This document shows positions 15,067 to 36,117 of a stretch of DNA of 64,000 nt, piece by piece. Made by a program: the position numbers and the translations under genes. The stretch is from Aequorivita aurantiaca. Lineage in GTDB: Bacteria > Bacteroidota > Bacteroidia > Flavobacteriales > Flavobacteriaceae. The stretch lies in NCBI RefSeq assembly GCF_030410135.1, contig NZ_JAUGQQ010000005.1, forward strand, positions 124,001-188,000, read 5' to 3'. A model generated the notes under the pieces. The model worked only from the letters and a program-made list of their open reading frames with translations, was not told where the DNA came from and did not search any database. Within the stretch, counting starts at the first letter, position 1; every line of letters begins with the position of its first letter.

Positions 15067-15579
15067 ATGAATTTTTATGATTACGTTCGGAACATTCAGA
15101 ATTTTCCAAAAGCAGGGATAAATTTCAAAGATATAAGCCCACTACTTGCAGACAAACATGCGTTGGCAAATTGTTTGTCAGAATTGGTAGTCCTTGTGGG
15201 CAGCCAAAAAATTGATAAAGTTGCTGCCATTGAATCTCGAGGCTTTTATTTTGGAACCCTTCTGGCCCATAAACTGGAGGCCGGTTTCGTGCCGATTAGA
15301 AAACCTGGAAAACTTCCATTTAAAACAATTAAGGAGCCTTATGAATTGGAATATGGGATTGATGTACTGGAAATTCACGAAGACGCAATAGAGGAAGGAG
15401 ACCGAATATTATTGCATGATGATGTTTTGGCAACCGGCGGAACAGCGAGAGCAGCTTGTAATTTAATTGAACGATTGGGCGGGAAAATTGTTCAATGTAA
15501 TTTTATTCTGGAACTTGAGTTTTTGTATGGAATAAAAAAATTGCAGGACCATTCCGTATGTTCCTTTTTGAAGTTTTAG
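15067..15579 (+). CDS. apt: Adenine phosphoribosyltransferase
   Basis: 170 aa, family length. Purine salvage: adenine + PRPP to AMP. PRPP-binding loop LLHDDVLATGGTARAA (about 115-130), the family-typical FPKAGINFKDISPLL near the N-terminus, and ESRGFYFG and RKPGKLP. Start ATG at 15067. Its stop codon overlaps that of a convergent 50-codon gene by 4 nt. Confidence 0.96.
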   Translation: MNFYDYVRNIQNFPKAGINFKDISPLLADKHALANCLSELVVLVGSQKIDKVAAIESRGFYFGTLLAHKLEAGFVPIRKPGKLPFKTIKEPYELEYGIDVLEIHEDAIEEGDRILLHDDVLATGGTARAACNLIERLGGKIVQCNFILELEFLYGIKKLQDHSVCSFLKF

Positions 15580-15728
15580 TCCAGAGCATTTTTAGCTACC
15601 CACACTTTATAGGCAAATATGGCCATTTGAAATTTAGAGGCTTTTGCCAAATCCACTTCATTCTTGGTGAAACTTGGTAATATTTTCTTATTTACCTTCG
15701 CCAAGAGTTTAAAAAAATTCTTTTTCAT
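15576..15728 (-). CDS. Small basic protein (50 aa), conserved-looking
   Basis: 50 aa from the ATG at 15728 (MKKNFFKLLAKVNKKILPS...) to the stop at 15576. Lysine-rich amphipathic N-terminus, then a hydrophobic C-terminal stretch (FQMAIFAYKVWVAKNALD). I recall very similar short proteins in other Flavobacteriaceae, sometimes labelled SsrA-binding protein without real SmpB similarity; no such function is supported here. It overlaps the apt stop by 4 nt. Too short for long-ORF gene finders. Confidence 0.7.
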   Translation of the reverse strand: MKKNFFKLLAKVNKKILPSFTKNEVDLAKASKFQMAIFAYKVWVAKNALD

Positions 15729-15789
15729 TGCGCGTTTATTTCAAATGATTTAAGTAAAGTGGCCTACTATTTTAAATAATATTGGAACA

Positions 15790-16683
15790 CTATTCTCCGT
15801 TGGCCATAATTGTGTTTTGTTTGTCGACAGCTAAAGTTATATTTTTAATTGGTTCCATTCCGTTACCAAAATTTGAAGTCGAAACAGACCCATTTCGATT
15901 ATCTACAGTAATATAAATCTTGGTTATTTGATTGTTTTTGTTTCGCTCTAAGCTCTTATAATGAACGGAAATATCTTTTTCATTATAAAATTCTTGAATT
16001 TTAAGCAACTCGCTATCTGTGGTGTTGCACGTTATCAGTTTTGAACCTGCCGGTTTTTTGGCACTATGAACGGCGGGTTGGCCAACGGAGCGGATGTCGT
16101 CGCTCTGTTTTTTCATTCGTCTTTCCATTTCTGCTTGTCGTTTTTCCATCTCCTTCATTTGGGTCTCCATCTCCATTTCCATTTGAGCTCTTTTTTTATT
16201 CATTGCTTCCCTCATATCGTTTTCGGCTTTTTGGGAGTTCTGGGAAACTTGATCATTATTGCCTTGTTGGATAATAGCTTGATTGGAATTCCCAACACTT
16301 CGAACCGAAATCCTTGTTCCCTCAGATGCTATTGTGATGTTGTTAATGGGGTTTTCGCTGCTAACACTGTAGTTTCCGGAATTATTGTTGGCGTCTTTAT
16401 ACCAAATGTTTATAGCTGTTATTTCATTTTGTTTGTTATAAACAACATTTGAATAGTCAAATCCAAATCCTTCATCCGTCATTTGCTTTTTTATTTTTTG
16501 AAGCTCTTCCAAGGTGGTTTCTTTTGTTATCACAATAGTAATTTGTTTTTCATGGATAATTTTGGTCGCTGTAAATGAAGGACAAACATTATTAGTGCCG
16601 AACAATAGGAACGGCAAGCCACAGAAGACCAAACTTAAATAAAATGAAAAATTTTGTAATAAATTTTTAATGGTGGTTTTCAT
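15790..16683 (-). CDS. Secreted protein with duplicated BlaR1-tail-like domain and one curlin-like segment
   Basis: 297 aa. Hydrophobic N-terminus (about 12-30) acts as signal or anchor. Two copies of one module are visible, about 45-120 (ITIVITKETTLEELQKIKK...) and about 214-295 (KLITCNTTDSELLKIQ...), each ending in NNIT/KNITLA. This module resembles the C-terminal repeats of Bacteroidota M56/BlaR1-type proteins, but no protease domain is present. Between them lie a curlin-like segment (about 126-151, NSNQAIIQQGNNDQV) and a charged coiled coil rich in M, E, K and R (about 152-195). A -7 box at 16762-16769 would give a 79-nt leader. Function unknown. Confidence 0.7.
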   Translation of the reverse strand: MKTTIKNLLQNFSFYLSLVFCGLPFLLFGTNNVCPSFTATKIIHEKQITIVITKETTLEELQKIKKQMTDEGFGFDYSNVVYNKQNEITAINIWYKDANNNSGNYSVSSENPINNITIASEGTRISVRSVGNSNQAIIQQGNNDQVSQNSQKAENDMREAMNKKRAQMEMEMETQMKEMEKRQAEMERRMKKQSDDIRSVGQPAVHSAKKPAGSKLITCNTTDSELLKIQEFYNEKDISVHYKSLERNKNNQITKIYITVDNRNGSVSTSNFGNGMEPIKNITLAVDKQNTIMANGE

Positions 16684-20411: not shown

Positions 20412-20430
20412 CTTATACTATTTAATAATT

Positions 20431-20469
20431 AAAAGCACCTAATTTAAAAAATCAGGTGCTTTATTTTTT
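20431..20469 (+). terminator. Terminator after glnA
   Basis: Stem AAGCACCT / AGGTGCTT (14-nt loop) followed by TATTTTTTT. Confidence 0.85.
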
Positions 20470-20750
20470 TGAAACGAGGTGAGAAAAAATGTGTTTTGTA
20501 TTCTATTCTTCTTTTGATAATGAAGCGGAATTTTTATTGAATTTTATATAGTTAAAAATGAAGAACTTAAATAAAATGGTTCCTATAATTCTTCGCCAAT
20601 CTATCATAGAAAACCGATAAACGACACAAATATTTTTCGAAATACGTGAACAACTATTTTAGAGGATAAATTTTTAACATAAAATTAACTTTTGTATAAA
20701 ATGTTAAAAAAGGATTCTGTATATCGGAAGAAATTATTCTTTAAACATTT

Positions 20751-20800
20751 TATCGATGAATAATGGTTCGGGTAATTCCTACATACATTATTCATCGATA
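20751..20800. repeat. Perfect 15-bp inverted repeat upstream of curlin gene 1
   Basis: Arms TATCGATGAATAATG (20751-20765) and CATTATTCATCGATA (20786-20800) are exact reverse complements around a 20-nt spacer. No T-run follows, so it does not look like a terminator; a dimeric-regulator site is possible. Confidence 0.8.
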
Positions 20801-20903
20801 CGATCCATCCCTTAATCGGATTGGAACTTAAGTTAAAATATTGCAGTTTTGGAAACTGAAATTTCAAAATGTTACTTCTCATTAAAAGGAAGTAAAAACA
20901 AAC

Positions 20904-20920
20904 CTATCCCCCTTAGTTAT
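20904..20920 (+). promoter_or_regulatory. TATCCCC motif, copy 1 (curlin promoter region)
   Basis: CTATCCCCCTTAGTTAT; 13 of 17 positions match copy 2 at 22382-22398. Located 205 nt before the start of curlin gene 1. Confidence 0.5.
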
Positions 20921-21124
20921 ACGTCCTTAATTTTTAGGAAATCAAAGAATTAGAATTTTTATAAGTTTTTCAATTTTTTTTAGAGAGGGAGTCTTCTTTA
21001 AGTATTTGAAAATCATTTTTAAATTCTTCTCAATGGTTTCCAGTTGAATTCTTTGGTAGCAAATAAGCTAACACGGAAAAATCAAACAATATTAAATAGA
21101 TAATAACCTTTAAACCTTTAAATT

Positions 21125-21982
21125 ATGAAAAAAGTTTTTTTAAGCACTTTAGCCTTAACATTCGGAGCAATTGGTTTTGCTCAAATCGGTAATATAGGAA
21201 CTGTAACGCAAACAGGAAATGAAAATGCGGGCATTGTAAATCAATCAGGGGATGCTAATACAGCTACAATAACTTCCGAGGGTAATAGATTTAAAAATAA
21301 TATTACTAAATATGGTAATTGGAGAACTGCAGGTGCGTCTGGCACAATGATGGCAAAAGGTGTGACCCAAACTGGGGACGGTAACACAGGGACTATATCT
21401 CAAGTAGGTTATAGTGGTGTTACTTCAGGCACTGGTAGTGCAGGTGTTGGACAATTAGGAAACTCCAATAAAGCGATCATTACTCAAACAAATGTCTTAG
21501 CGCACGCTTGGAGCAGTCAAAATCAAGCCTTTGTTGATCAAATTGGCGATTTAAATGAAAGCGTTCAATATCAAACTGGTCGTGCAGGTACAAGTTATTT
21601 TAGACAAGCCGGGAATGATAACTATGCAGAATCCCAACAAGCGAGCCAATCCAGTGCCAAATTAGAACAAGAAGGTAACAGAAATAATTCCGTTCAAATC
21701 CAGGGAGCAGAGAATGGCCAAAAATCAGATACCTATCAACTAGGGAATGACAACTTAGCAACGAGTAACCAATCTGGTGGTTTAAGCAATGAATCCACAA
21801 TTTTACAAGATGGTGATACCAATATCGCAGGAGTGACTCAATTTGGTGCTACCAATAAAGGATATGTAACTCAAACTGGAGATTATAACACTGGAACAAT
21901 TTCATCTAATGGCACTAATCATTTAGGCACAATAACCCAAATTGGTGGTTTAAATGAGGCCATTATTACTCAAAATCAATAA
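21125..21982 (+). CDS. Curlin-repeat amyloid subunit (CsgA-like) 1
   Basis: 285 aa. Signal peptide MKKVFLSTLALTFGAIGFAQ, then about ten to twelve degenerate curlin repeats of the form (V/I)xQxGxxNxaxixQ spaced roughly 20-24 residues, for example VTQTGDGNTGTISQVG, VGQLGNSNKAIITQTN and ITQIGGLNEAIITQNQ at the very C-terminus. Strongly Q/N/G/T-rich, no cysteine. Such repeats stack into a beta-solenoid amyloid outside the cell. Larger than E. coli CsgA (151 aa), as in other Bacteroidota. Own promoter region and terminator, so its dose is set separately from the export operon downstream. Confidence 0.9.
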   Translation: MKKVFLSTLALTFGAIGFAQIGNIGTVTQTGNENAGIVNQSGDANTATITSEGNRFKNNITKYGNWRTAGASGTMMAKGVTQTGDGNTGTISQVGYSGVTSGTGSAGVGQLGNSNKAIITQTNVLAHAWSSQNQAFVDQIGDLNESVQYQTGRAGTSYFRQAGNDNYAESQQASQSSAKLEQEGNRNNSVQIQGAENGQKSDTYQLGNDNLATSNQSGGLSNESTILQDGDTNIAGVTQFGATNKGYVTQTGDYNTGTISSNGTNHLGTITQIGGLNEAIITQNQ

Positions 21983-22006
21983 GTGGTAATTCAATGAGAT
22001 TATATT

Positions 22007-22036
22007 AAAAAAGGGGAGAAACTCCCCTTTTTTGTT
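22007..22036 (+). terminator. Terminator after curlin gene 1
   Basis: Stem AAAGGGGAG / CTCCCCTTT with a 3-nt loop followed by TTTTG. Confidence 0.85.
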
Positions 22037-22582
22037 TCTATATGTTGATGCCTATTCTAACCAAAACATACTATCATTAATTCTAACAGGTGAGAGGTAA
22101 ACATTTTACTTCAAATAGTTTATAAAATCATAATTATACCTATTCATTACTATTTAACAAAAATTTAACAAATTTATTTATTTTGATTATTTAGGTATTT
22201 TACCGAACAAAAGTTTCAATACATCATCTTTTCCCAAAATTGTTAATAAGATATTTCTTACATTTAAATTTAACTAGTTTCACACTTCAGTTTTAAAGTT
22301 TGGTTATTAGAAAATTATTTGGATATTTGGCTTGTAGTTAAAACGAAAAATTTTGACTGCGTACTCCTCAAAATAACAAATCTATCCCCTTTTACTATCA
22401 GATTCTCTTTCGAGAAAATTTGAAATCTTTATCCCCTAATATACATTTAGCATTTTTGAATGCAATGTTATCCCCACACTTATTTTGACAAATCCATTGA
22501 TTTGTTGAATGCCAAGGAAAAAACCTTGTTTAAGAACAGAATATTTTTTTAACCAAATATTAATCTTTTAAACTATTTAATT
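22037..22582 (+). other. Long upstream region of the second curlin gene
   Basis: 546 nt with no credible gene. Holds three TATCCCC motifs at 22383-22389, 22430-22436 and 22469-22475. No TAnnTTTG box close to the start. Confidence 0.6.
22382..22475 (+). promoter_or_regulatory. TATCCCC motif cluster, copies 2-4
   Basis: TATCCCC occurs at 22383, 22430 and 22469 (same strand, spacing 47 and 39 nt) in otherwise AT-rich DNA 108-200 nt before curlin gene 2; copy 2 aligns with copy 1 upstream of curlin gene 1 over 17 nt. Confidence 0.5.
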
Positions 22583-24055
22583 ATGAAAAAAGTAATTTTA
22601 AGCGCTGCGGCGCTAATGATTTGTGGGTTTGCCTTTGCTCAAAGGGGAGGAGTTGAAACTCCTACAGCACCTACAGGAGCGGAACAGATAGCAAATTTAT
22701 CTGCTGATCCTACGGCGAATACGGGACAGTCCACACAGACGGGTAATGATAATCGTGTTCAGGTTTTGCAAATTGGAACAAGCCAATCAGCATCAACTTA
22801 TCAAGGTGATGGAAGTGGTAGTGGTGGTAACTTAGCATCAATTAGGCAGGTTGGTGCAATTCAAGCTGGTATAAGTGGTGAGAGAAATGATGCTGAAGTG
22901 CATCAGTTCGGTACTGAAAACAAGTCTATTACTAATCAGGAGGGAGATTTGAATGAAGCTCTTACTAACCAGGGAATGAATGATGACGGTAGCACAAATA
23001 ACTTTGCCTGGATTCGTCAAGGTACCAATGAGCAGGCACAGGAAAATATGTCGGAAGTTAATCAGGATGGTGACAACAACGTAGCAAAAACCTTGCAAAC
23101 ATTTGATGGAAGTTCCGCTCTTATTAACCAAGTAGGTGATGACAACAAGGCTTTCAGCAAACAAAATGCGGGTGCTAATTTAACCGGAGGGCATCAATCA
23201 GAGATTTGGCAAGAAGGAGACGATAACAAAGCCTTCCAGGATCAAAAACAAGGAAATGATGGGAATAATTCTGCGTTAATTGCTCAAATAGGCGATGGCA
23301 ACGAAGCTCAGCAAACACAAGAAAATATGGGTGGATCGGGTGCTGCACAAAACACGGCATTTATTTCACAGGGTGATGGAACTATTGCAAGTGACTTAAC
23401 CACTTCAATTTACTATGGCCGTCTTACTTTATTAGATGATATTCAGAATGGATCCTATAATGCTGGTTCCACAAATGGTAGAGCTTTCCAAGATCAAGTT
23501 GGTGTAGGGAATAATGTTGAGTTGTATCAAAATGGGGATGCTACTAATGGTAGTAACTATTCTGAGCAAAATCAGGATGGTACTGACAATGATGGTTACG
23601 TAATACAAAACCTATTTGGAAATCCTAATGGAAGTGGTAACGCTGCATGGCAAGATCAAACAGGGTCTGGTAACCAAGCTGGTATAGCCCAAAACGGAAA
23701 TACTCACAAAGCATATCAGTTCCAAAATGGTAATGACAACATTGCAATGTCAACTCAAAGGGGAGAGTGTAACCAACTAAATACTCATCAACTTGGCGAT
23801 GACAACTATGCTCAAACTGCTCAAAGAGGACATGATAACGGTATCCTAATTGTTCAAGATGGTGGTCACAGTTATTCAGTACAACAGAATCTTCTTGATG
23901 GAATGCCCAACGGTGGCAATTCTGTAAATGTGCTTCAATTAAATCCTAATGGTGTGGATCCAAATATCGTTTGTGATTTCCCAACAATGGATACGCACGA
24001 TGGCGGTTATGGTACTCCAGGCTTAACTATAGATGATGTGTGCCCAGGTTGCTAA
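22583..24055 (+). CDS. Curlin-repeat amyloid subunit (CsgA-like) 2, large
   Basis: 490 aa. Signal peptide MKKVILSAAALMICGFAFAQ, a 50-residue linker, then about fifteen curlin-type repeats (TQTGNDNRVQVLQIG, INQVGDDNKAFSKQ, WQEGDDNKAFQDQ, HQLGDDNYAQTAQRG and others), many with an acidic GDDN/GDxN turn. The last about 60 residues leave the repeat pattern and hold three cysteines, two of them in CPGC at the terminus; one more Cys is in GECNQ. Unusually large for a curlin. Acidic turns and a Cys-bearing tail distinguish it from subunit 1. Own upstream region and terminator. Confidence 0.88.
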   Translation: MKKVILSAAALMICGFAFAQRGGVETPTAPTGAEQIANLSADPTANTGQSTQTGNDNRVQVLQIGTSQSASTYQGDGSGSGGNLASIRQVGAIQAGISGERNDAEVHQFGTENKSITNQEGDLNEALTNQGMNDDGSTNNFAWIRQGTNEQAQENMSEVNQDGDNNVAKTLQTFDGSSALINQVGDDNKAFSKQNAGANLTGGHQSEIWQEGDDNKAFQDQKQGNDGNNSALIAQIGDGNEAQQTQENMGGSGAAQNTAFISQGDGTIASDLTTSIYYGRLTLLDDIQNGSYNAGSTNGRAFQDQVGVGNNVELYQNGDATNGSNYSEQNQDGTDNDGYVIQNLFGNPNGSGNAAWQDQTGSGNQAGIAQNGNTHKAYQFQNGNDNIAMSTQRGECNQLNTHQLGDDNYAQTAQRGHDNGILIVQDGGHSYSVQQNLLDGMPNGGNSVNVLQLNPNGVDPNIVCDFPTMDTHDGGYGTPGLTIDDVCPGC

Positions 24056-24089
24056 TCTTTTATAAGTTAGAATTTGTAAGAAAAAATAA

Positions 24090-24117
24090 TAGGAGGGCAA
24101 TTCATTGTCCTCCTTTT
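24090..24117 (+). terminator. Terminator after curlin gene 2
   Basis: Stem AGGAGGGCAAT / ATTGTCCTCCT (one G-U) followed by TTTT. Confidence 0.75.
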
Positions 24118-24232
24118 ACAATAAAAATTGATACCTTGAAGCTTAATTAAATAGGTGTATATTTGTAAATGATATAAATTCATTCAAAAAATACTACGGT
24201 CTATTTAAAGTATTACAACTGTAAAATTATTC

Positions 24233-24775
24233 ATGATGATCAGATTATCTAAAGTTTATCTTTTCTTTCTTAGTATGGTGGTTTTTACCCCATCACTTAC
24301 TGGGCAAACTTATAAAGAAGAAAATAAAAAAATTGATGGGAACAATGTGGTGCTGAAAGGGGAAAATGTTAATCCTGAAGTTTTATCCAATTTTGGAATA
24401 TTTGCCACGCCCAACCCCAAAAACGCTACGGTTCAAGGAAATTCTGTTTTTGTGAGACAGATTGGTGATTTTAATACTGCAAGTGTACAGACTAAGACCA
24501 ACGCAAGTGAAATTAATCTGTTGCAAAATGGCAATAGTAACCATACGCAACTGGACTATACTGCTAATACAGCTATAGCTGATTTGGTCCAAAATGGGGA
24601 TTATAACCAAATCACTGACTTTGTAAATGACCCGAATGCCGATATTTCTTTAGATCTCGTACAGGAAGGAAGCAACTTGAACTTTGAACGAAACGGTGTT
24701 AATGAATTGACCAAATCAATAAAGTTTAAACAAACGGAAGCCTCTCCGACCATTATAGTTCGAAGTTATTTTTAA
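24233..24775 (+). CDS. Small curlin-repeat protein, probable CsgB-like nucleator
   Basis: 180 aa. Signal peptide ending SLTGQ (about residue 24), a 50-residue linker and about three to four degenerate curlin repeats (FVRQIGDFNTASVQ, INLLQNGNSNHTQLD, LVQNGDYNQITD, LVQEGSNLNFERNG), then a non-repeat tail ending IIVRSYF with several basic residues. Fewer, poorer repeats and first place in the export operon suggest the minor nucleating subunit; in E. coli CsgB also has a basic C-terminal repeat. That assignment is inference. Two ATGs are adjacent; the first is used here. 15 nt before the csgE-like gene. Confidence 0.75.
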   Translation: MMIRLSKVYLFFLSMVVFTPSLTGQTYKEENKKIDGNNVVLKGENVNPEVLSNFGIFATPNPKNATVQGNSVFVRQIGDFNTASVQTKTNASEINLLQNGNSNHTQLDYTANTAIADLVQNGDYNQITDFVNDPNADISLDLVQEGSNLNFERNGVNELTKSIKFKQTEASPTIIVRSYF

Positions 24776-24790
24776 GAAAAATACTTCACT

Positions 24791-25567
24791 TTGAAAGAAA
24801 AAAAAACATTTGAACACGTAGTGACTTTTCTAATTCTGCTAATTAGTGCTGTCATTAATGCCCAGTTCTACAATAAAGATTATGTGGGTAAAATTTATGT
24901 AAAACAGGATAGTGAATTCTTCACCTTTACGGCAACAGCAGAGAACCTTACTCCAGTAGATGTAAATTTGAAATATGATTTTATTATTTATAAAGTAGAT
25001 ACCGCAAAAAATACATCAAAAAATAATCAGGAAAATCTCTTTTTTTTAAAAGGGAATGATAAAGTAGCGTTAGCCTCAACAACTATAAGTTATAATGAAC
25101 AAGGAAAAATAACCTTGGTTTTAATAATATATGATAATGATGGAAAACCTGTAGGTCAGGACAGAATTGAATTAAATTCTGATGGAAATAATCAATCGGT
25201 TCCAAGAGACAATCAAGTGGAAGCTGAAAATTCAGATCAGGCCTTACCTCAGGATGGGATTATTTTGGATGGACTGGTTTTGGAAAAAACCATTACTAAA
25301 GCCGGACGTGATTTTTATAAATATTTTTACGCAGAATATTATAACAGACAAATAAGAACGAAAAAAAATATATTCATTGAAGAAGTTCCAGGCAGATTTC
25401 GAAACACGAGAATTTCGGTGTCAATCGACGGCCAATTACTTTGGCAATTTTTTTCGCAGCCTAATAAATCTTTTCTACAAAGTATGGCAACTACAGCATT
25501 AGATAAATGTATTTTGTATCTTCAACAACTACAACAACAAAAGACAAATTCAATAACACACTATTGA
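24791..25567 (+). CDS. csgE: CsgE with an extra CsgH-like N-terminal domain
   Basis: 258 aa, about twice E. coli CsgE (129 aa). TTG start; signal peptide to about residue 24 (AVINAQ). Residues 25-125 form a beta-rich domain (TFTATAENLTPVDVNLKYDFIIYK ... VALASTTISYNEQGKITLVLIIYD) with the strand pattern of CsgH, a periplasmic curlin chaperone/inhibitor known from alphaproteobacteria. A charged linker (about 126-155) leads to a CsgE domain (about 156-250: LDGLVLEKTITKAGRDFYKYF, NIFIEEVPGRFRNTRISV, LLWQFF). CsgE caps the CsgG channel from the periplasm and selects subunits. The CsgE call is firm; CsgH likeness rests on pattern only. Confidence 0.8.
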   Translation: MKEKKTFEHVVTFLILLISAVINAQFYNKDYVGKIYVKQDSEFFTFTATAENLTPVDVNLKYDFIIYKVDTAKNTSKNNQENLFFLKGNDKVALASTTISYNEQGKITLVLIIYDNDGKPVGQDRIELNSDGNNQSVPRDNQVEAENSDQALPQDGIILDGLVLEKTITKAGRDFYKYFYAEYYNRQIRTKKNIFIEEVPGRFRNTRISVSIDGQLLWQFFSQPNKSFLQSMATTALDKCILYLQQLQQQKTNSITHY

Positions 25568-25568
25568 A

Positions 25569-25985
25569 ATGAAAATATTTAAAGTTCCCTTTTTAGCCCT
25601 TGCTCTATTTTTTTGGAGTTCTATAAGTTTTGCGCAACAATTTTCATACACACCGTTAAACCCTGCATTTGGAGGAGACACTTTTAATTATAATTGGCTG
25701 CTAAGTTCTGCAACTTCGCAAAATAAACTTACAGCACCTGTTAATCCTAGAGACCAACTATCTGAATTGGAACAATTCGGCTCAAACTTAAATCGACAAT
25801 TACTTAGTCAGATTTCACGTATTCTTTTACAACAGCAGTTAGGTGGCTTAGGAAATTTTGATCAAGAAGGCACCTTTACCTACGGTACTTTGAATGTTGA
25901 GATTTATCAATCCGATGAAGGATTGGTCATAAATATTTTGGATACATCCAATGGCGAAGAAACCCAGGTTATTGTCCCAAATTAA
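25569..25985 (+). CDS. csgF: CsgF curli assembly factor
   Basis: 138 aa, E. coli length. Signal peptide MKIFKVPFLALALFFWSSISFAQ. The mature N-terminus has the CsgF plug signature FSYTPLNPAFGGDTFNYNWL, which inserts into the CsgG pore from outside; the C-terminal half (YGTLNVEIYQSDEGLVINILD) is the conserved beta region. Its ATG follows the csgE stop by 1 nt. Predicted to hold the nucleator at the cell surface. Confidence 0.95.
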   Translation: MKIFKVPFLALALFFWSSISFAQQFSYTPLNPAFGGDTFNYNWLLSSATSQNKLTAPVNPRDQLSELEQFGSNLNRQLLSQISRILLQQQLGGLGNFDQEGTFTYGTLNVEIYQSDEGLVINILDTSNGEETQVIVPN

Positions 25986-25994
25986 ATATATTTC

Positions 25995-27377
25995 ATGAAA
26001 ATAATTTACAAAGCTATACCATTTCTGGTAACTTTATTTTTATCCTCTTGCTCGGCATATTTTAATCAACCGATGTTCCAGGAACCTTCCAGGACCGGCG
26101 AATTGTCTAAATCTACAAACAAACTTTTGGATTTACCACCTGCTGCACAACCTGTTGAAGTTGCTGTCTATAATTTTAGCGATCAGACCGGTCAATATAA
26201 GGCAGTAGAGTTGGGAAGTACATTTAGTACTGCAGTTTCACAAGGAGGAACTACAATGTTGATAAAAGCTTTAGAGGATTCGGGCTGGTTCATTCCAATT
26301 GAGAGAGAGAATTTAAATAATTTATCCACGGAAAGAAATATTATCCGAAATACGAAACAGGAATATGTTAAAAACCTAAATCCAAACGAACCGCCGTTGC
26401 CACCATTATTATATGCTGGTTTATTGTTGGAAGGGGGGGTGATTTCTTACGATACCAATATTATAACTGGGGGAATAGGAGCGAGATATTTTGGCTTGGG
26501 CGGTTCCGCAAAATATAGACAGGACCGAATTACCGTCTACTTAAGGGCAGTTTCCACCAGTAATGGCGAAATCTTAAAAACGGTTTACGTTTCAAAAACT
26601 ATCCTTTCGCAGGCTATCGACGCTAGCTTTTTCCGCTTCGTTAAATTTCAACGATTATTGGAAGCAGAGACAGGGGTAACTCAGAACGAACCCGTGCAAT
26701 TGGCCATGAAGGATGCCATTGAGAAGGCCGTTCATGACCTGATTATTGAAGGTATTCAAAAACAATTCTGGAGCTCACAAGGTGGAAAGGAAGTAAATGA
26801 TCAACTAGTTGCTGAATATATAGCTGAAAAGGAAACGGATGAATCAACACTGCTGTTTGATAGATTACAAGTGGGAAGGGATGCACAAAATACTTTAGGA
26901 ATTTCATTAGGGGGCAATTTACCTGATAATGATTATTCAACCCAAGAGCTGGGATTTTTGGGAAGTTTGGAGTATGGAAGGCATTTTGGACGATTTTTTA
27001 ACGTGAATTTAAAAACATCGGTTTTTAGAATTGATAATGGTAGACAGTATAGAAATGTTTTTGCAAGTGCAGACATTAATGGGCAATTCGCATTACTTCC
27101 AAATGATAAGCTCACGCCTTTTGTTTATGCAGGTTCTGGTGTAATTATTAGTTTGTTGGATCCGAAAAATGACAATGCCTTTGATACCGGTGAACCATTT
27201 TTTAAGGTTCAGTACGGAGTGGGCCTAGAATATTTTATTTCGAAAAAAGTAGGAGTAAAATTATTCGGTGAACATAACCTTGTTTTTACCGATAAGTTAG
27301 AGAAAGCCGTCCAAGGTAAGAGGAACGATTTTTATTTTAATTTTGGGGTGGGCGTAAATTATTATTTTAAACTATAA
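25995..27377 (+). CDS. csgG: CsgG secretion channel with C-terminal beta-barrel-like extension
   Basis: 460 aa, against about 277 in E. coli. Lipobox LSSC near residue 20 marks an outer-membrane lipoprotein. Residues 50-270 are the CsgG domain (VAVYNFSDQTGQYK, STAVSQGGTTMLIKAL, ARYFGLGGSAKYRQDRITVYLRAV). After a short linker, residues 295-460 form about eight alternating amphipathic strands ending VGVNYYFKL, with an aromatic C-terminal strand as in small outer-membrane barrels (OmpA transmembrane type). The extension is in one frame with no sign of error. Role of the second barrel is unknown; anchoring or surface contact is possible. Confidence 0.88.
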   Translation: MKIIYKAIPFLVTLFLSSCSAYFNQPMFQEPSRTGELSKSTNKLLDLPPAAQPVEVAVYNFSDQTGQYKAVELGSTFSTAVSQGGTTMLIKALEDSGWFIPIERENLNNLSTERNIIRNTKQEYVKNLNPNEPPLPPLLYAGLLLEGGVISYDTNIITGGIGARYFGLGGSAKYRQDRITVYLRAVSTSNGEILKTVYVSKTILSQAIDASFFRFVKFQRLLEAETGVTQNEPVQLAMKDAIEKAVHDLIIEGIQKQFWSSQGGKEVNDQLVAEYIAEKETDESTLLFDRLQVGRDAQNTLGISLGGNLPDNDYSTQELGFLGSLEYGRHFGRFFNVNLKTSVFRIDNGRQYRNVFASADINGQFALLPNDKLTPFVYAGSGVIISLLDPKNDNAFDTGEPFFKVQYGVGLEYFISKKVGVKLFGEHNLVFTDKLEKAVQGKRNDFYFNFGVGVNYYFKL

Positions 27378-27398
27378 AAAATTTAATAATATAAGACA

Positions 27399-28922
27399 AT
27401 GAAAAAATTGATAACCTTATTTTCTGTATGTCTATTTCTTTTACATATCAGTTGTAGTGAAGACACGATAGATGTTGTGTTGATGGGAAATCTTTCCGGA
27501 AAGGTTACAGACAAATTAACAGGGGTACCGTTGGAAAATGTGAAAATAACAACAAATCCAGCATCTACGACCGTTTTCACGGATTCAATAGGGAGGTTTA
27601 GAATTAATAATATACCAGTAGATGATTATTCCGTCCAAGCTGAATTGAGTGGTTATGCCGCAGGTTTTGAAGCTACGGCCGTTACTGAAGGCCAGACTGC
27701 CGCAGTTTCTTTTGAGCTCTCCTTAGCTAATTCTGATAACAATCCACCCACTATTCCAATTTTGATATCACCCGAAGATGGCGCGGTAGATTTGCCTCTG
27801 GAAGTACAATTCATTTGGGAAGCCTCCGATCCAGAAGATGATGAGCTTTCTTATACGCTAGATTTGCGAAATGGAAGCACTGATGAAGTTCAAGTTTTTG
27901 AAGTAGGCCAGGATACTACCTTTACGGTAAGCAATCTTCAATTGGCCACGAAATATTTTTGGCAAGTTACGGTCACCGATGAAACAAATGATCCTGTGAG
28001 TTCGCTTATTAGTGAATTTAAAACGCTTACATTGCCTGACAATCCATATATTTTTGTAAAGGAAAAAAATGGAAGTCTTGTTATATTTTCAGGGGCACAG
28101 GATACGGTAACTGGAGGAAATACCACACCGGATTTCAATGTTCTGCAGCTAACCAGTGATAACACAAATAGTTTTAGACCTCGAAAAAGCAACATTCTTA
28201 AAAGAATTGCCTTTTTGCGCAATTCCGGGGGGAATACGAATATTTTTACAATGAATTATGACGGAACAGATGTTAGACAAATAACCAGTCAAAGACCTTT
28301 AGCTGGGTTCAGAACTGAAGAATTAGATTTTACTTGGGCTAAAAATGATAGTAAACTATATTATCCATATTTTGATAAATTATATTCTGTAAATTCGGAT
28401 GGGAGCGGATTTATGTTAGAATACACCACAAGTGATGGTGCCTTTATTTCAGAAGTCGCCGTTCCGGAATTTGATGACAATTTAGTGTTGTTAAAAACGA
28501 ATAACCCAAGCGGATATGACGTACGTATTTATACGGCAAGAATTGATACGGATACAGAGGAAACCATTATTCTGGAAAATGTAAGTGGCGCGGCCGGAGG
28601 AATTGACATTACGTCAAATGCCGATAGTGTTGTATACACCTGGGATAAAAGTGGAAATCAAAATTCCTCCTATAAAATTTCTGAAAGCAGAATATTTCTT
28701 TTTACAATAGGAAGCGGAAATCCTCCCATGGAATTGGACACAAACGCCATTCCTGGCGAAAATGATTTGGATGTCAAATATTCCCCCTCCGAAGGTGGCG
28801 TAATATTTACACGGGTCAAAAGTAACTTTGGAGCGGATCCAGCTATCTATTCATTTTCATTTGACCAAAATCAGGAGGATCAATTATTATTTACTAAAGC
28901 ATTTATGCCCGACTGGCAATAA
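27399..28922 (+). CDS. Lipoprotein with CarboxypepD_reg, Fn3 and beta-propeller regions, in the curli operon
   Basis: 507 aa. Lipobox HISC near residue 20. About 28-110: CarboxypepD_reg-like domain (GNLSGKVTDKLTGVPLENV). About 118-210: fibronectin type III-like domain (PPTIPILISPEDGA ... TKYFWQVTVTDE). About 215-507: TolB/PD40-like propeller repeats (NTNIFTMNYDGTDVRQIT, DSKLYYPYFDKLYSVNSDGSG). Starts 21 nt after csgG and ends at the operon terminator, so it is very probably co-transcribed with csgE-F-G. No enzyme motif. A surface-binding or fibre-anchoring role is a guess from the domain types. Confidence 0.75.
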   Translation: MKKLITLFSVCLFLLHISCSEDTIDVVLMGNLSGKVTDKLTGVPLENVKITTNPASTTVFTDSIGRFRINNIPVDDYSVQAELSGYAAGFEATAVTEGQTAAVSFELSLANSDNNPPTIPILISPEDGAVDLPLEVQFIWEASDPEDDELSYTLDLRNGSTDEVQVFEVGQDTTFTVSNLQLATKYFWQVTVTDETNDPVSSLISEFKTLTLPDNPYIFVKEKNGSLVIFSGAQDTVTGGNTTPDFNVLQLTSDNTNSFRPRKSNILKRIAFLRNSGGNTNIFTMNYDGTDVRQITSQRPLAGFRTEELDFTWAKNDSKLYYPYFDKLYSVNSDGSGFMLEYTTSDGAFISEVAVPEFDDNLVLLKTNNPSGYDVRIYTARIDTDTEETIILENVSGAAGGIDITSNADSVVYTWDKSGNQNSSYKISESRIFLFTIGSGNPPMELDTNAIPGENDLDVKYSPSEGGVIFTRVKSNFGADPAIYSFSFDQNQEDQLLFTKAFMPDWQ

Positions 28923-28945
28923 TTCGCTAAAAAATTCAAATCACT

Positions 28946-28972
28946 AAAGCCCACCTTTGTGGGCTTTTTTTT
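28946..28972 (+). terminator. Terminator of the curli export operon
   Basis: Stem AAAGCCCAC / GTGGGCTTT with a 4-nt loop and a run of T residues, 24 nt after the lipoprotein stop. Confidence 0.9.
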
Positions 28973-34113: not shown

Positions 34114-35067
34114 TTATTTAAGCACTTTAACCGTCTTTGAAGAATCTCCGATAGTTACTTTAACTAGATAAGATCCAGAAGCTAGGTTCCCCATGTTGAT
34201 TGCTGGTGAAATTTTTCCAGGGTTTTCTTGAAGAACAACTTTTCCTAATAAATCATAAACAGTAACATTGTCAACAGCAGTACTTGACTTAATGTTCAAC
34301 ATATCCTTTACTGGGTTCGGATAAACTGAGAATTTAGCTGCCGAGAATTCATCAACACCTACAGTTGTAATGTCACCATTATAAAGGGTTACGTCATCTA
34401 TGTACATTTCATTATGGGCAGTTGCTGAATAGAAGTCCAAACCTGCCAATTCAATAAACACTTGCGTGTTAAATGCAAATGGATGTGCAAAAAAGAATTG
34501 AACATCATCAATGTACATATCCCAAGTTTCATTGTCAAGATCATAAACGCAATCCACTTTAAACCATTGATCCTCTGGATATGTAAAAGAAGCTGCTGAT
34601 AGTGTACATTCCTGACCTGCTGGACTTTGGTCAATGGTACCGATACCGCCAGATGCACCGTCACAGTTAAAGAATATATTACCACCCATTAAGGCTTGTA
34701 CCCACGCGGAACCTTCAGGAGTTAACGCAGCTTGCATGTTGAAATATCCTCCCTTTCCGGCAGGAATATATGCGTGAAATTGAATTGAATAGATGCCACT
34801 TGTTGGGGCTGAAGGCACCAAAAGCATTAAATCGGTGGCGAGGTTTCCAGGAATTAGAATAGATTGTAAACCGGAAAGAGCTTCATCATCTACAACGTTT
34901 GCCTCATCGGCACCGCCATCAACACCACTCCATGTTCTCCAATGTGGAGATTGAGCTGAAATACCTCCTAAATTATATGATTCAATGTCATCATATAGCT
35001 CCTGTTGAGCATTTGATGTAAAACTAAATGCTCCTAAAAGAAGCGCTACTAGGTAAACTTTTTTCAT
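34114..35067 (-). CDS. T9SS-secreted LamG/ConA-like protein A
   Basis: 317 aa. Signal peptide MKKVYLVALLLGAFSFTSNAQ, a beta-sandwich region of concanavalin-A/LamG character (about 22-240: DDIESYNLGGISAQSPHWRTWSG, WFKVDCVYDLDNETWDMYIDD, EMYIDDVTLY) and a type A type IX secretion sorting tail (about 248-317: SVYPNPVKDMLNI ... SSKTVKVLK). Such proteins pass through the T9SS and are usually attached to the cell surface. Probably binds carbohydrate or other ligand; no enzyme motif. Tandem paralogue of the next gene. Confidence 0.88.
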   Translation of the reverse strand: MKKVYLVALLLGAFSFTSNAQQELYDDIESYNLGGISAQSPHWRTWSGVDGGADEANVVDDEALSGLQSILIPGNLATDLMLLVPSAPTSGIYSIQFHAYIPAGKGGYFNMQAALTPEGSAWVQALMGGNIFFNCDGASGGIGTIDQSPAGQECTLSAASFTYPEDQWFKVDCVYDLDNETWDMYIDDVQFFFAHPFAFNTQVFIELAGLDFYSATAHNEMYIDDVTLYNGDITTVGVDEFSAAKFSVYPNPVKDMLNIKSSTAVDNVTVYDLLGKVVLQENPGKISPAINMGNLASGSYLVKVTIGDSSKTVKVLK

Positions 35068-35166: not shown

Positions 35167-36117
35167 TTATTTCAATACTTTAACTGTTTTTGAAGAATCT
35201 CCGATGGTCACTTTAACTAAGTAAGATCCAGAAGCCAGATTGCTCATGTTGATTGCTGGAGAAATTTTTCCAGGGTTCTCTTGAAGAACTACTTTTCCTA
35301 ATATATCGTAAACAGTTACATTGTCAACAGCAGTGCTAGACTTAATGTTCAACATATCTTTCACTGGGTTTGGATATACGGAAAATTTGTCAGCTGAAAA
35401 ATCATTCACGCCTGCAGTCGTGATATCACCACTATAAAAAGTAACGTTATCTATAAACATTTCATTCGCAGCACTTGCAGAATAGAAATCTAATCCGGCT
35501 AATTCAATAAATACTTGAGGGCCAAATGCGAATGGGTAATCAAATACAAATTGAATATCGTCAATATACATATCCCATGCCTGACCATCGATGTCATACA
35601 CACAAGTAACTTTGAACCACTGATCTTCAGGATAGGTAAAGGCTGCATCACCGGCTACAGGCACACAATCAATTGCGCCAGAAACGCTTCCAATTCCCCC
35701 AGAGTTACCATCGCAGTTAAAATAAACGTTACCACCCATTAATGCTTGAACCCAAGCACTTCCTTCAGGAGTAACTGCGGCCTGCATATTAAAATACCCA
35801 GCTTTCCCAGCAGGAATATAAGAATAAAATTCAATGGAGTAGACTCCGCTAGTTGGTGCAGAAGGTACCAAGGCAATTAAATCTGTTAATGTGTTTCCTG
35901 GAATAAGAAGTGATTGTAATCCAGAAAAAGATTCGTCATCAACAACGTTTCCATCGTCAGACCCACCGTCAACCCCACTCCAAGTTCTCCACTGCGGAGA
36001 CTGGGCAGATATTGGGCCTAGGTTATAAGATTCGAAATCATCTACAAGCTCAACTTGAGCATTAGATGAAAAACTAAATGCACCTAAAACTAGTGCTAAA
36101 ATGTAAATTTTTTTCAT
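35167..36117 (-). CDS. T9SS-secreted LamG/ConA-like protein B
   Basis: 316 aa, tandem paralogue of protein A with the same layout: signal peptide (MKKIYILALVLGAFSFSSNAQ), beta-sandwich region and type A sorting tail. The last 68 residues differ from protein A at only two positions, while the central region is more diverged (around residues 145-160 the insert differs in length and sequence). Each copy has its own terminator. The promoter-like TATTTTTG lies at 36160-36167, giving a 43-nt leader. Ligand unknown. Confidence 0.88.
   Translation of the reverse strand: MKKIYILALVLGAFSFSSNAQVELVDDFESYNLGPISAQSPQWRTWSGVDGGSDDGNVVDDESFSGLQSLLIPGNTLTDLIALVPSAPTSGVYSIEFYSYIPAGKAGYFNMQAAVTPEGSAWVQALMGGNVYFNCDGNSGGIGSVSGAIDCVPVAGDAAFTYPEDQWFKVTCVYDIDGQAWDMYIDDIQFVFDYPFAFGPQVFIELAGLDFYSASAANEMFIDNVTFYSGDITTAGVNDFSADKFSVYPNPVKDMLNIKSSTAVDNVTVYDILGKVVLQENPGKISPAINMSNLASGSYLVKVTIGDSSKTVKVLK

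What the first reader, a model, noticed from the sequence alone, without database searches (positions are those of the whole stretch)
20412..28972. Bacteroidota curli locus with two big, separately driven amyloid subunits and an export operon
Seen: two large curlin-repeat proteins (285 and 490 aa), each with a 550-650 nt upstream region and its own terminator, then a tight five-gene run (24233-28922; gaps of 15, 1, 9 and 21 nt) ending at one terminator. Known: CsgG, CsgE and CsgF form the type VIII secretion channel, cap and plug. Inferred: subunit expression is uncoupled from machinery expression, and two subunits of different composition allow mixed or conditional fibres. No csgD-like gene or csgC is in the window.
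Basis: partly seen in the sequence, partly recalled or inferred. Interest (0 to 1): 0.7.

Follow-up and report, generated by a model that had tools for sequence, protein, structure and literature searches.

The report
Curli locus with chaperone-gate fusion
This stretch of a flavobacterial genome encodes a complete machine for making curli amyloid fibres, in which an amyloid-chaperone-like domain is built into the export gate protein and the export channel carries an extra membrane barrel; in some Flavobacterium relatives the chaperone and gate halves appear to be joined by a slip in reading frame.

Summary
In detail: coordinates, repeat proteins, gaps and operon are right. (1) The csgE gene is a fusion: an N-terminal CsgC/CsgH-type domain (closest small fold match E. 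coli CsgC, TM 0.78) plus CsgE, so a CsgC-like function is probably not absent. The two domains share one frame in 122 of 159 sequences compared. (2) CsgG carries a C-terminal eight-stranded outer-membrane barrel, in 78 of 78 loci. (3) The last gene is a conserved lipoprotein with a Bacteroidota surface-export signal (61 of 75, against 0 of 77 for CsgG). (4) The operon's first gene is a third curlin-like protein. Terminator hairpins support partial uncoupling of subunits from machinery; no separate promoter signal was found. In 42 of 98 distinct Flavobacterium loci the two halves lie in different frames, joined at an exact A10 run, with both frames under coding constraint: probably programmed frameshifting or transcriptional slippage. 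The window lacks that run at the junction. Searches found neither fusion nor frameshift in print.

The parts
21125..21982 (+). CsgA-like curlin subunit 1, 285 aa
   Evidence: Pfam Curlin_rpt E 1.5e-21, 7 stretches
22583..24055 (+). CsgA-like curlin subunit 2, 490 aa, acidic (pI 4.05)
   Evidence: Pfam Curlin_rpt E 1.4e-10, 7 stretches; pI
24233..24775 (+). third, small curlin-like protein, CsgB-like (candidate nucleator), first gene of the machinery operon
   Evidence: NCBIfam CsgA 4e-5, CsgB 6.5e-4, both below cut-off, Pfam 0.011; a 130-200 aa curlin-like ORF precedes csgE in the flavobacterial loci
24791..25567 (+). CsgH-CsgE fusion protein, 258 aa
   Evidence: CsgE PF10627 residues 159-252; CsgH NF041112 residues 36-120, E 2.9e-4, below its cut-off; model and fold match
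24866..25180 (+). CsgC/CsgH-type Ig-like domain (residues 26-130)
   Evidence: seven strands, residues 31-129, ten-residue pLDDT means 90-97; CsgC 2xsk TM 0.78 over 95 columns, CsgH 2n59 TM 0.67, both normalised to the target
25265..25546 (+). CsgE gate domain (residues 159-252)
   Evidence: Pfam CsgE E 2.6e-17; 2na4 CsgE is the best sequence match in the PDB, E 0.013
25569..25985 (+). CsgF
   Evidence: Pfam CsgF E 5.4e-32
25995..27377 (+). CsgG lipoprotein secretion channel with a C-terminal extension, 460 aa
   Evidence: Pfam CsgG E 1.3e-65; Cys19 invariant in a 31-row alignment
26889..27368 (+). C-terminal eight-stranded outer-membrane barrel of CsgG (residues 299-458)
   Evidence: eight long strands; NspA 1p4t TM 0.84, OmpA 1qjp TM 0.76, normalised to the target; homologous remainder in 78 of 78 loci
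27399..28922 (+). curli-associated lipoprotein (CarboxypepD_reg; fn3-like and propeller-like matches below cut-off), surface-export signal C-S-E-D
22006..22034 (+). terminator-like hairpin after subunit 1
24091..24114 (+). terminator-like hairpin after subunit 2, short U-tract
   Evidence: z -5.0; not listed by the scanner nor by the rule
28946..28967 (+). terminator-like hairpin after the five-gene operon
20904..20914 (+). CTATCCCCYTT element upstream of subunit 1
   Evidence: 4 exact copies in the genome, 2 of them upstream of the two subunit genes; reversed control pattern 1
22382..22392 (+). CTATCCCCYTT element upstream of subunit 2, first of three TATCCCC copies

Best explanation
A Bacteroidota curli biogenesis locus. 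Shown from sequence and models: three curlin-like proteins with signal-peptide-like starts (by eye), a CsgH-CsgE fusion, CsgF, a CsgG with an added C-terminal 8-stranded barrel, and a conserved lipoprotein. Inferred: the curlins enter the periplasm by Sec; CsgC/H-type domains, tethered by a ~30-residue flexible linker to the CsgE cap beneath the CsgG pore, keep them unfolded at the gate itself instead of diffusing freely as CsgC does in E. coli. If CsgG is a nonamer as in E. coli, nine satellite barrels would surround the central pore and would probably need BAM for assembly. CsgF on the outside and the surface lipoprotein hold and nucleate the fibre. In a Flavobacterium clade the same two-domain gene is split at an A10 run, so CsgH alone and CsgH-CsgE are probably both made by frameshifting or transcriptional slippage; the lineage of the window uses the permanent fusion.
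For: Families. Fold: CsgC 2xsk TM 0.78, CsgH 2n59 TM 0.67. Of nine stand-alone ORFs of the same domain in other loci six were scanned and five pass the curated CsgH cut-off. Fusion in one frame in 122 of 159 sequences (the two halves of that set share species). CsgG barrel remainder homologous in 78 of 78 loci, 75 by the first search and 78 after profile iteration; of 52 plasmid records with a CsgG match, the only 7 that cover 80% or more of the query are Hymenobacter, Spirosoma and Salinibacter. Surface-export signal 61 of 75 lipoproteins against 0 of 77 CsgG, signal defined in PMC5080379 (passages read). Slip site: 42 of 98 distinct Flavobacterium loci, exactly A10 then G, -1 frame; differences at codon positions 1,2,3 of the E frame 2493, 1377, 8785; the E half has at most 29 open codons before its domain, so hardly room for its own signal peptide.
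Against: In the window the CsgH profile scores 20.8 bits, below its cut-off of 35. The domain has no cysteine, whereas CsgC and CsgH are described with disulphides, and its pI (5.0) is 0.3 to 1.0 above the curlins (4.70, 4.05), not about two as PMC4838910 gives on average. Ig-like domains of unrelated enzymes match as well or better by E-value. The CsgG core is modelled poorly as a monomer (mean pLDDT 70.2). A start codon lies in frame before the E domain in 11 of 43 split loci, so separate initiation of a CsgE without signal peptide is not excluded there. No expression, secretion or fibre data exist here.
Confidence: 0.8

Rival explanations
1. The N-terminal domain of the CsgE gene is a generic Ig-like spacer or docking domain, not an amyloid-inhibiting CsgC/CsgH homologue.
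For: Sub-cut-off CsgH score and no cysteines in the window protein; GH2-type Ig domains match the model at similar or better E-values; elsewhere in Bacteroidota CsgE carries a LysM domain instead (9 of 25 scanned), so the N-terminal slot accepts different modules.
Against: Iterated profile links it to stand-alone CsgH genes, five of six scanned passing the curated cut-off; the alignment shares the CsgH-type block; CsgC has the highest target-normalised TM among the 50 matches listed; it sits in a curli operon.
Confidence: 0.18
2. In Flavobacterium the A10 split is phase variation or gene decay, not programmed recoding: A10 is an OFF state for CsgE.
For: Homopolymer tracts are classic contingency loci (recalled); one locus has A12; two distinct relatives carry an 11-A run in frame.
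Against: 42 distinct loci all have exactly A10 in the same codon phase, where a switching tract should scatter in length; E remains under coding constraint; the run is concentrated in one group of 48 rows, 47 carrying it, plus three outside; A_AAA_AAG is the dnaX shift site (PMC5009743, passages).
Confidence: 0.2
3. One reading: three independently controlled transcription units with subunits fully uncoupled from machinery.
For: Hairpins after each unit, hairpins after the last csgA in 38 of 119 loci, shared upstream element at both subunit genes and only two other places in the genome.
Against: No enrichment of the Bacteroidota promoter element before csgB; the hairpin before csgB in the window has a weak U-tract; 81 of 119 loci, the window included, show no such hairpin by the rule.
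Confidence: 0.35
4. The curlin-repeat proteins are not amyloid subunits exported by this CsgG.
For: No experiment; long, repeat-rich proteins up to 490 aa differ from E. coli CsgA.
Against: Repeats match the family and the genes lie next to CsgB/E/F/G homologues in nearly all fetched loci; published surveys link repeats to curli operons (PMC10192328, PMC3521004, passages).
Confidence: 0.05

Closest known systems
E. coli curli, csgBAC and csgDEFG
   Same: curlins, CsgE, CsgF, CsgG; CsgC fold present
   Different: CsgC-type domain fused to CsgE, CsgG with an extra barrel, no csgD nearby, extra lipoprotein, much longer curlins
Bacteroidetes curli operons surveyed by Dueholm 2012 (PMC3521004, passages read)
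   Same: same kind of gene set and large multi-repeat curlins; the paper says all Bacteroidetes genera lack csgC and, except Spirosoma, csgD
   Different: the passages do not describe a CsgH domain in CsgE, a CsgG barrel, the lipoprotein or a frameshift; 'fused', 'N-terminal' and 'C-terminal' do not occur in its text
CsgH family (PMC4838910, passages read; PDB 2n59)
   Same: Ig-like fold, curli operon; the paper mentions a Bacteroidetes CsgH sub-family
   Different: here fused to CsgE, no cysteines, not clearly basic; 'fusion' and 'fused' do not occur in that paper
dnaX -1 frameshift site A_AAA_AAG (PMC5009743, passages read)
   Same: same heptamer in the same codon phase at the Flavobacterium csgH-csgE junction
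   Different: different gene; no conserved stimulator shown; absent from the window junction
Phage lambda gpG/gpGT tail chaperone frameshift (PMC5009743, passages read)
   Same: by analogy only: a chaperone alone plus the chaperone fused to a second module by a -1 shift
   Different: unrelated proteins

Membership tests
Curli / type VIII secretion system | curlin repeat subunits | tested here: met
   two proteins over cut-off; third below
Curli / type VIII secretion system | CsgG channel, CsgF and CsgE together | tested here: met
Curli / type VIII secretion system | CsgD regulator nearby | tested here: not met
   no GerE match in the window; Bacteroidetes other than Spirosoma lack csgD in PMC3521004
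Curli / type VIII secretion system | extracellular amyloid fibres | not testable with these tools
   needs microscopy and dye binding
CsgC/CsgH chaperones | seven-stranded Ig-like fold | tested here: met
CsgC/CsgH chaperones | curated CsgH profile score | tested here: inconclusive
   window 20.8 of 35 bits, not met; 5 of 6 stand-alone relatives scanned pass, L130 34.4 does not; 3 more stand-alone ORFs not scanned
CsgC/CsgH chaperones | paired cysteines | tested here: not met
   no Cys in residues 26-130
CsgC/CsgH chaperones | pI about two units above the curlin | tested here: not met
   5.01 against 4.70 and 4.05
CsgC/CsgH chaperones | inhibits amyloid formation | not testable with these tools
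   ThT assay needed
Bacteroidota surface lipoproteins | acidic export signal after the lipid-bearing Cys | tested here: met
   window C-S-E-D; 61 of 75 against 0 of 77 CsgG, signal from PMC5080379
Programmed -1 frameshifting (Flavobacterium loci only) | conserved in-phase slippery heptamer A_AAA_AAG | tested here: met
   42 of 42 distinct -1 split loci; one further split locus has A12; absent at the window junction
Programmed -1 frameshifting (Flavobacterium loci only) | coding constraint in both frames | tested here: met
Programmed -1 frameshifting (Flavobacterium loci only) | downstream structure or upstream stimulator | tested here: inconclusive
   mean z -1.39, 8 of 42 below -2; upstream stimulator not tested
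Programmed -1 frameshifting (Flavobacterium loci only) | both products detected | not testable with these tools
   needs proteomics or ribosome profiling

The most novel reading that the evidence does not exclude
Flavobacteria have built the amyloid-blocking chaperone into the curli gate (CsgH-CsgE), and one Flavobacterium clade sets the dose of free chaperone against gate-tethered chaperone by programmed slippage at a conserved A10 run; the channel itself is a ring of up to nine outer-membrane barrels around the CsgG pore.
Probability: 0.5. Interest if true: 0.78.

Novelty: new variant of a known kind. Interest (0 to 1): 0.6.

Why it matters
Curli is the model for safe amyloid production. A natural fusion of a CsgC/H-type domain to the CsgE gate suggests where the inhibitor acts, at the mouth of the channel, and gives a single protein on which to test it. 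A conserved frameshift that makes both free and tethered chaperone would be, if confirmed, the first recoding event known to me in curli assembly. A CsgG with its own OmpA-like barrel would change how the channel is inserted: the title of a paper cited in PMC12611786 (seen in its reference list only) says that assembly of CsgG does not need BamA or TamA. CsgG is also a nanopore scaffold (recalled).

Tried and rejected
Bacteroidota promoter element upstream of the machinery operon: present once in the window gap (TATATTTG, about 75 nt before csgB), but not enriched over shuffles across 119 gaps, so not claimed. Sigma-70-like sites: 35 found against 34.3 expected, uninformative. Slippage in the window itself: its A9 run lies near the start of the gene, not at the junction; outside Flavobacterium 21 of 115 fused genes have a longest A-run of 9 or 10, scattered over the gene and not at one conserved place, a few of them in the linker. 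Downstream stem-loop as a frameshift stimulator: weak. Early stop in the shifted frame of in-frame relatives: 6 of 7 within four codons after a -1 slip, but background is 42%, weak. Duplicated CsgE as the N-terminal half in other classes: not supported, it is LysM in 9 of 25 and without a Pfam match in the other 16. Further copies of the lipoprotein in the genome: only a 64-residue partial match. The shared CTATCCCCYTT element also lies at two other, unrelated-looking places, so a curli-specific regulator is not shown. Script searches stopped with errors after printing the results used; the comparison for the terminator after the lipoprotein gene was never obtained. The first count of the C-terminal barrel was not clean, because its profile matched into the CsgG core, and was replaced.
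Full report
Observation. The window lies in a 3.09-Mb genome; its CsgG is 89% identical to that of two Aequorivita records, so it is probably Aequorivita or a close relative (inference). Curlin-repeat matches over the family cut-off in the genome all lie in the first subunit gene; weaker ones lie in the other two genes of this locus, and one stray weak match elsewhere. The first gene of the five-gene run (24233-24775) is a third, weakly scoring curlin-like protein, so the locus encodes three curlin-like proteins.

The csgE gene is a fusion. Pfam CsgE covers only residues 159-252 of 258. Residues 36-120 match the NCBIfam CsgH profile at E 2.9e-4, below its cut-off. An AlphaFold2 model from 64 sequences (mean pLDDT 86.7, pTM 0.58) shows a seven-stranded domain at 31-129, a low-confidence linker, and a second domain at 163-253. 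Foldseek places CsgC (2xsk, TM 0.78 normalised to the target) and CsgH (2n59, 0.67) at ranks 5 and 7, together with Ig domains of unrelated enzymes, some with better E-values. Of nine stand-alone ORFs of the same domain found in other loci, six were scanned and five pass the curated CsgH cut-off; L130 falls just short. Against full membership: no cysteines and only a small pI difference to the curlins.

How common it is. CsgE occurs in 42 of 199 genomes drawn from the family and 41 of 395 drawn from the phylum. I fetched one locus for each of the 79 other genomes with a hit (one genome had three hits) and 79 more from mostly named genomes with a CsgG alignment (which kept the best 80 of 583 confirmed stretches); the two sets share species. 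In the 159 sequences including the window, H and E are in one frame in 122, separate in 17, no H was found in 19, and one has neither domain. The order curlin(s), csgB-like, csgHE, csgF, csgG, lipoprotein recurs in the flavobacterial loci. Of the 27 first-set loci without a one-frame fusion, 25 CsgE proteins were scanned (the two Flavobacterium split loci L130 and L131 were left out): Pfam finds LysM in 9 and nothing beside CsgE in 16. So the N-terminal slot of CsgE is a place where modules are exchanged (inference).

CsgG. The protein has 460 residues; residues 299-458 form eight long strands, 11 of the 16 ten-residue blocks from 301 on having pLDDT of 90 or more, while the CsgG core is poorly modelled as a monomer (mean pLDDT 70.2, pTM 0.56). 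Foldseek finds CsgG for the core (4uv2, E 3.9e-15) and NspA (1p4t, TM 0.84) and OmpA (1qjp, 0.76) for the extension. A homologous remainder is present in 78 of 78 loci with a called CsgG, 75 by a single search and 78 after profile iteration. In the plasmid collection 52 records match; the only 7 that cover 80% or more of the query are Hymenobacter, Spirosoma and Salinibacter, and the three proteobacterial records listed cover 54-58% (42 records not listed). That nine such barrels surround the pore follows only if the E. coli nonamer holds here.

Lipoprotein. The last gene is found in 76 of 80 sequences: about 500 aa in the flavobacterial loci, and in 22 of the 25 loci with neither one-frame fusion nor Flavobacterium split, short (134-272 aa) in 15 and long in 7. 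Of 75 with a recognised lipobox (of 77), 61 have at least two acidic residues in the four positions after the cysteine; CsgG has none in 77 (of 78). In the window the sequence is C-S-E-D. PMC5080379 (passages read) shows that a polar or basic residue followed by acidic residues exports lipoproteins to the surface in this phylum. Surface exposure and a role in holding or nucleating the fibre are inferred.

Frameshift in Flavobacterium. Eleven loci in the first comparison had CsgH and CsgE in overlapping, different frames at one A10 run. A genus-wide search found CsgE in 93 of 398 genomes, all 93 examined. Over 107 loci, 98 distinct: 55 in one frame, 42 with CsgE in the -1 frame, every one of these at exactly ten A followed by G in the phase nAA AAA AAA AAG, and one split at A12 in the other frame. 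Five in-frame loci also carry an A10 run, one of them not followed by G, and two an A11 run. Runs of at least ten A occur twice in 440,401 nt of flanking sense-strand sequence. Against this as a special signal: 21 of 115 fused genes outside Flavobacterium have a longest run of 9 or 10 A, at scattered places. Among the A10 split loci, differences between pairs under 25% diverged fall at codon positions 1, 2, 3 as 3686, 1422, 9702 in the H frame and 2493, 1377, 8785 in the E frame (pairs are not independent), so both halves are under protein constraint. The E frame is open for at most 29 codons before its domain in 43 split loci, 11 of which hold a possible start codon there, whereas 42 of 42 H halves have a hydrophobic N-terminal stretch: only a shifted product is likely to be exported as CsgE. 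On a tree of 98 rows the run is concentrated in one 48-row group (47 with a run, SH-aLRT 85), with three rows elsewhere, one of them split (quick method, 37 of 93 inner branches weak). A_AAA_AAG is more shift-prone in E. coli than the four other heptamers named beside it and is the dnaX site (PMC5009743, passages). I cannot tell ribosomal frameshifting from transcriptional slippage; the single A12 locus fits slippage better, the uniform codon phase fits ribosomal shifting. Phase variation remains possible.

Regulation. Hairpins with T-tails follow the last csgA in 38 of 119 loci and other csgA genes in 22 of 68 (shuffle means 0.3 and 0.15). The Bacteroidota -7 element is not enriched before csgB. 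Both subunit genes of the window have CTATCCCCYTT about 200-220 nt upstream; the genome has four exact copies, the reversed control pattern one. TATCCCC occurs upstream of 21 of 220 csgA-like genes in the loci, about 4 expected (loci share species). No LuxR/GerE protein is in the window.

Known or new. Bacteroidota curli, large curlins and missing csgC and csgD are known (PMC3521004, passages). PMC4838910 (passages) mentions a Bacteroidetes CsgH sub-family and does not use the words fusion or fused. Searches for csgH-csgE fusion, LysM-CsgE and recoding in curli returned no paper on them by title and abstract start (one search returned none); searches for the CsgG barrel and for Bacteroidota curli lipoproteins likewise. 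The library holds open-licence papers only.

Noticed in passing
L130, L131, L203, L213-L218, L221, L222 and 31 further distinct Flavobacterium loci: csgH and csgE halves in different frames joined at an exact A10 run, candidate programmed frameshift or slippage
   Followed up: yes
L107, L110 and 7 other loci outside the fused set: CsgE carries an N-terminal LysM (peptidoglycan-binding) domain instead of CsgH
   Followed up: partly
L179:6841-7560 and 15430-16146: two csgHE copies in one flavobacterial contig
   Followed up: no
window 15790-16683 (-): secreted-looking protein with what looks by eye like one curlin-like repeat, about 4.4 kb upstream of the curli genes; no Pfam family over cut-off
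   Followed up: partly
window 34114-35067 and 35167-36117 (-): two similar neighbouring proteins, both with a type IX secretion C-terminal sorting domain
   Followed up: partly
window 20904-20914, 22382-22392 and nearby: repeated TATCCCC elements upstream of subunit genes, also in relatives L069, L146, L147
   Followed up: partly
plasmids of Hymenobacter, Spirosoma and Salinibacter: barrel-type CsgG genes on plasmids; some loci may be mobile
   Followed up: no
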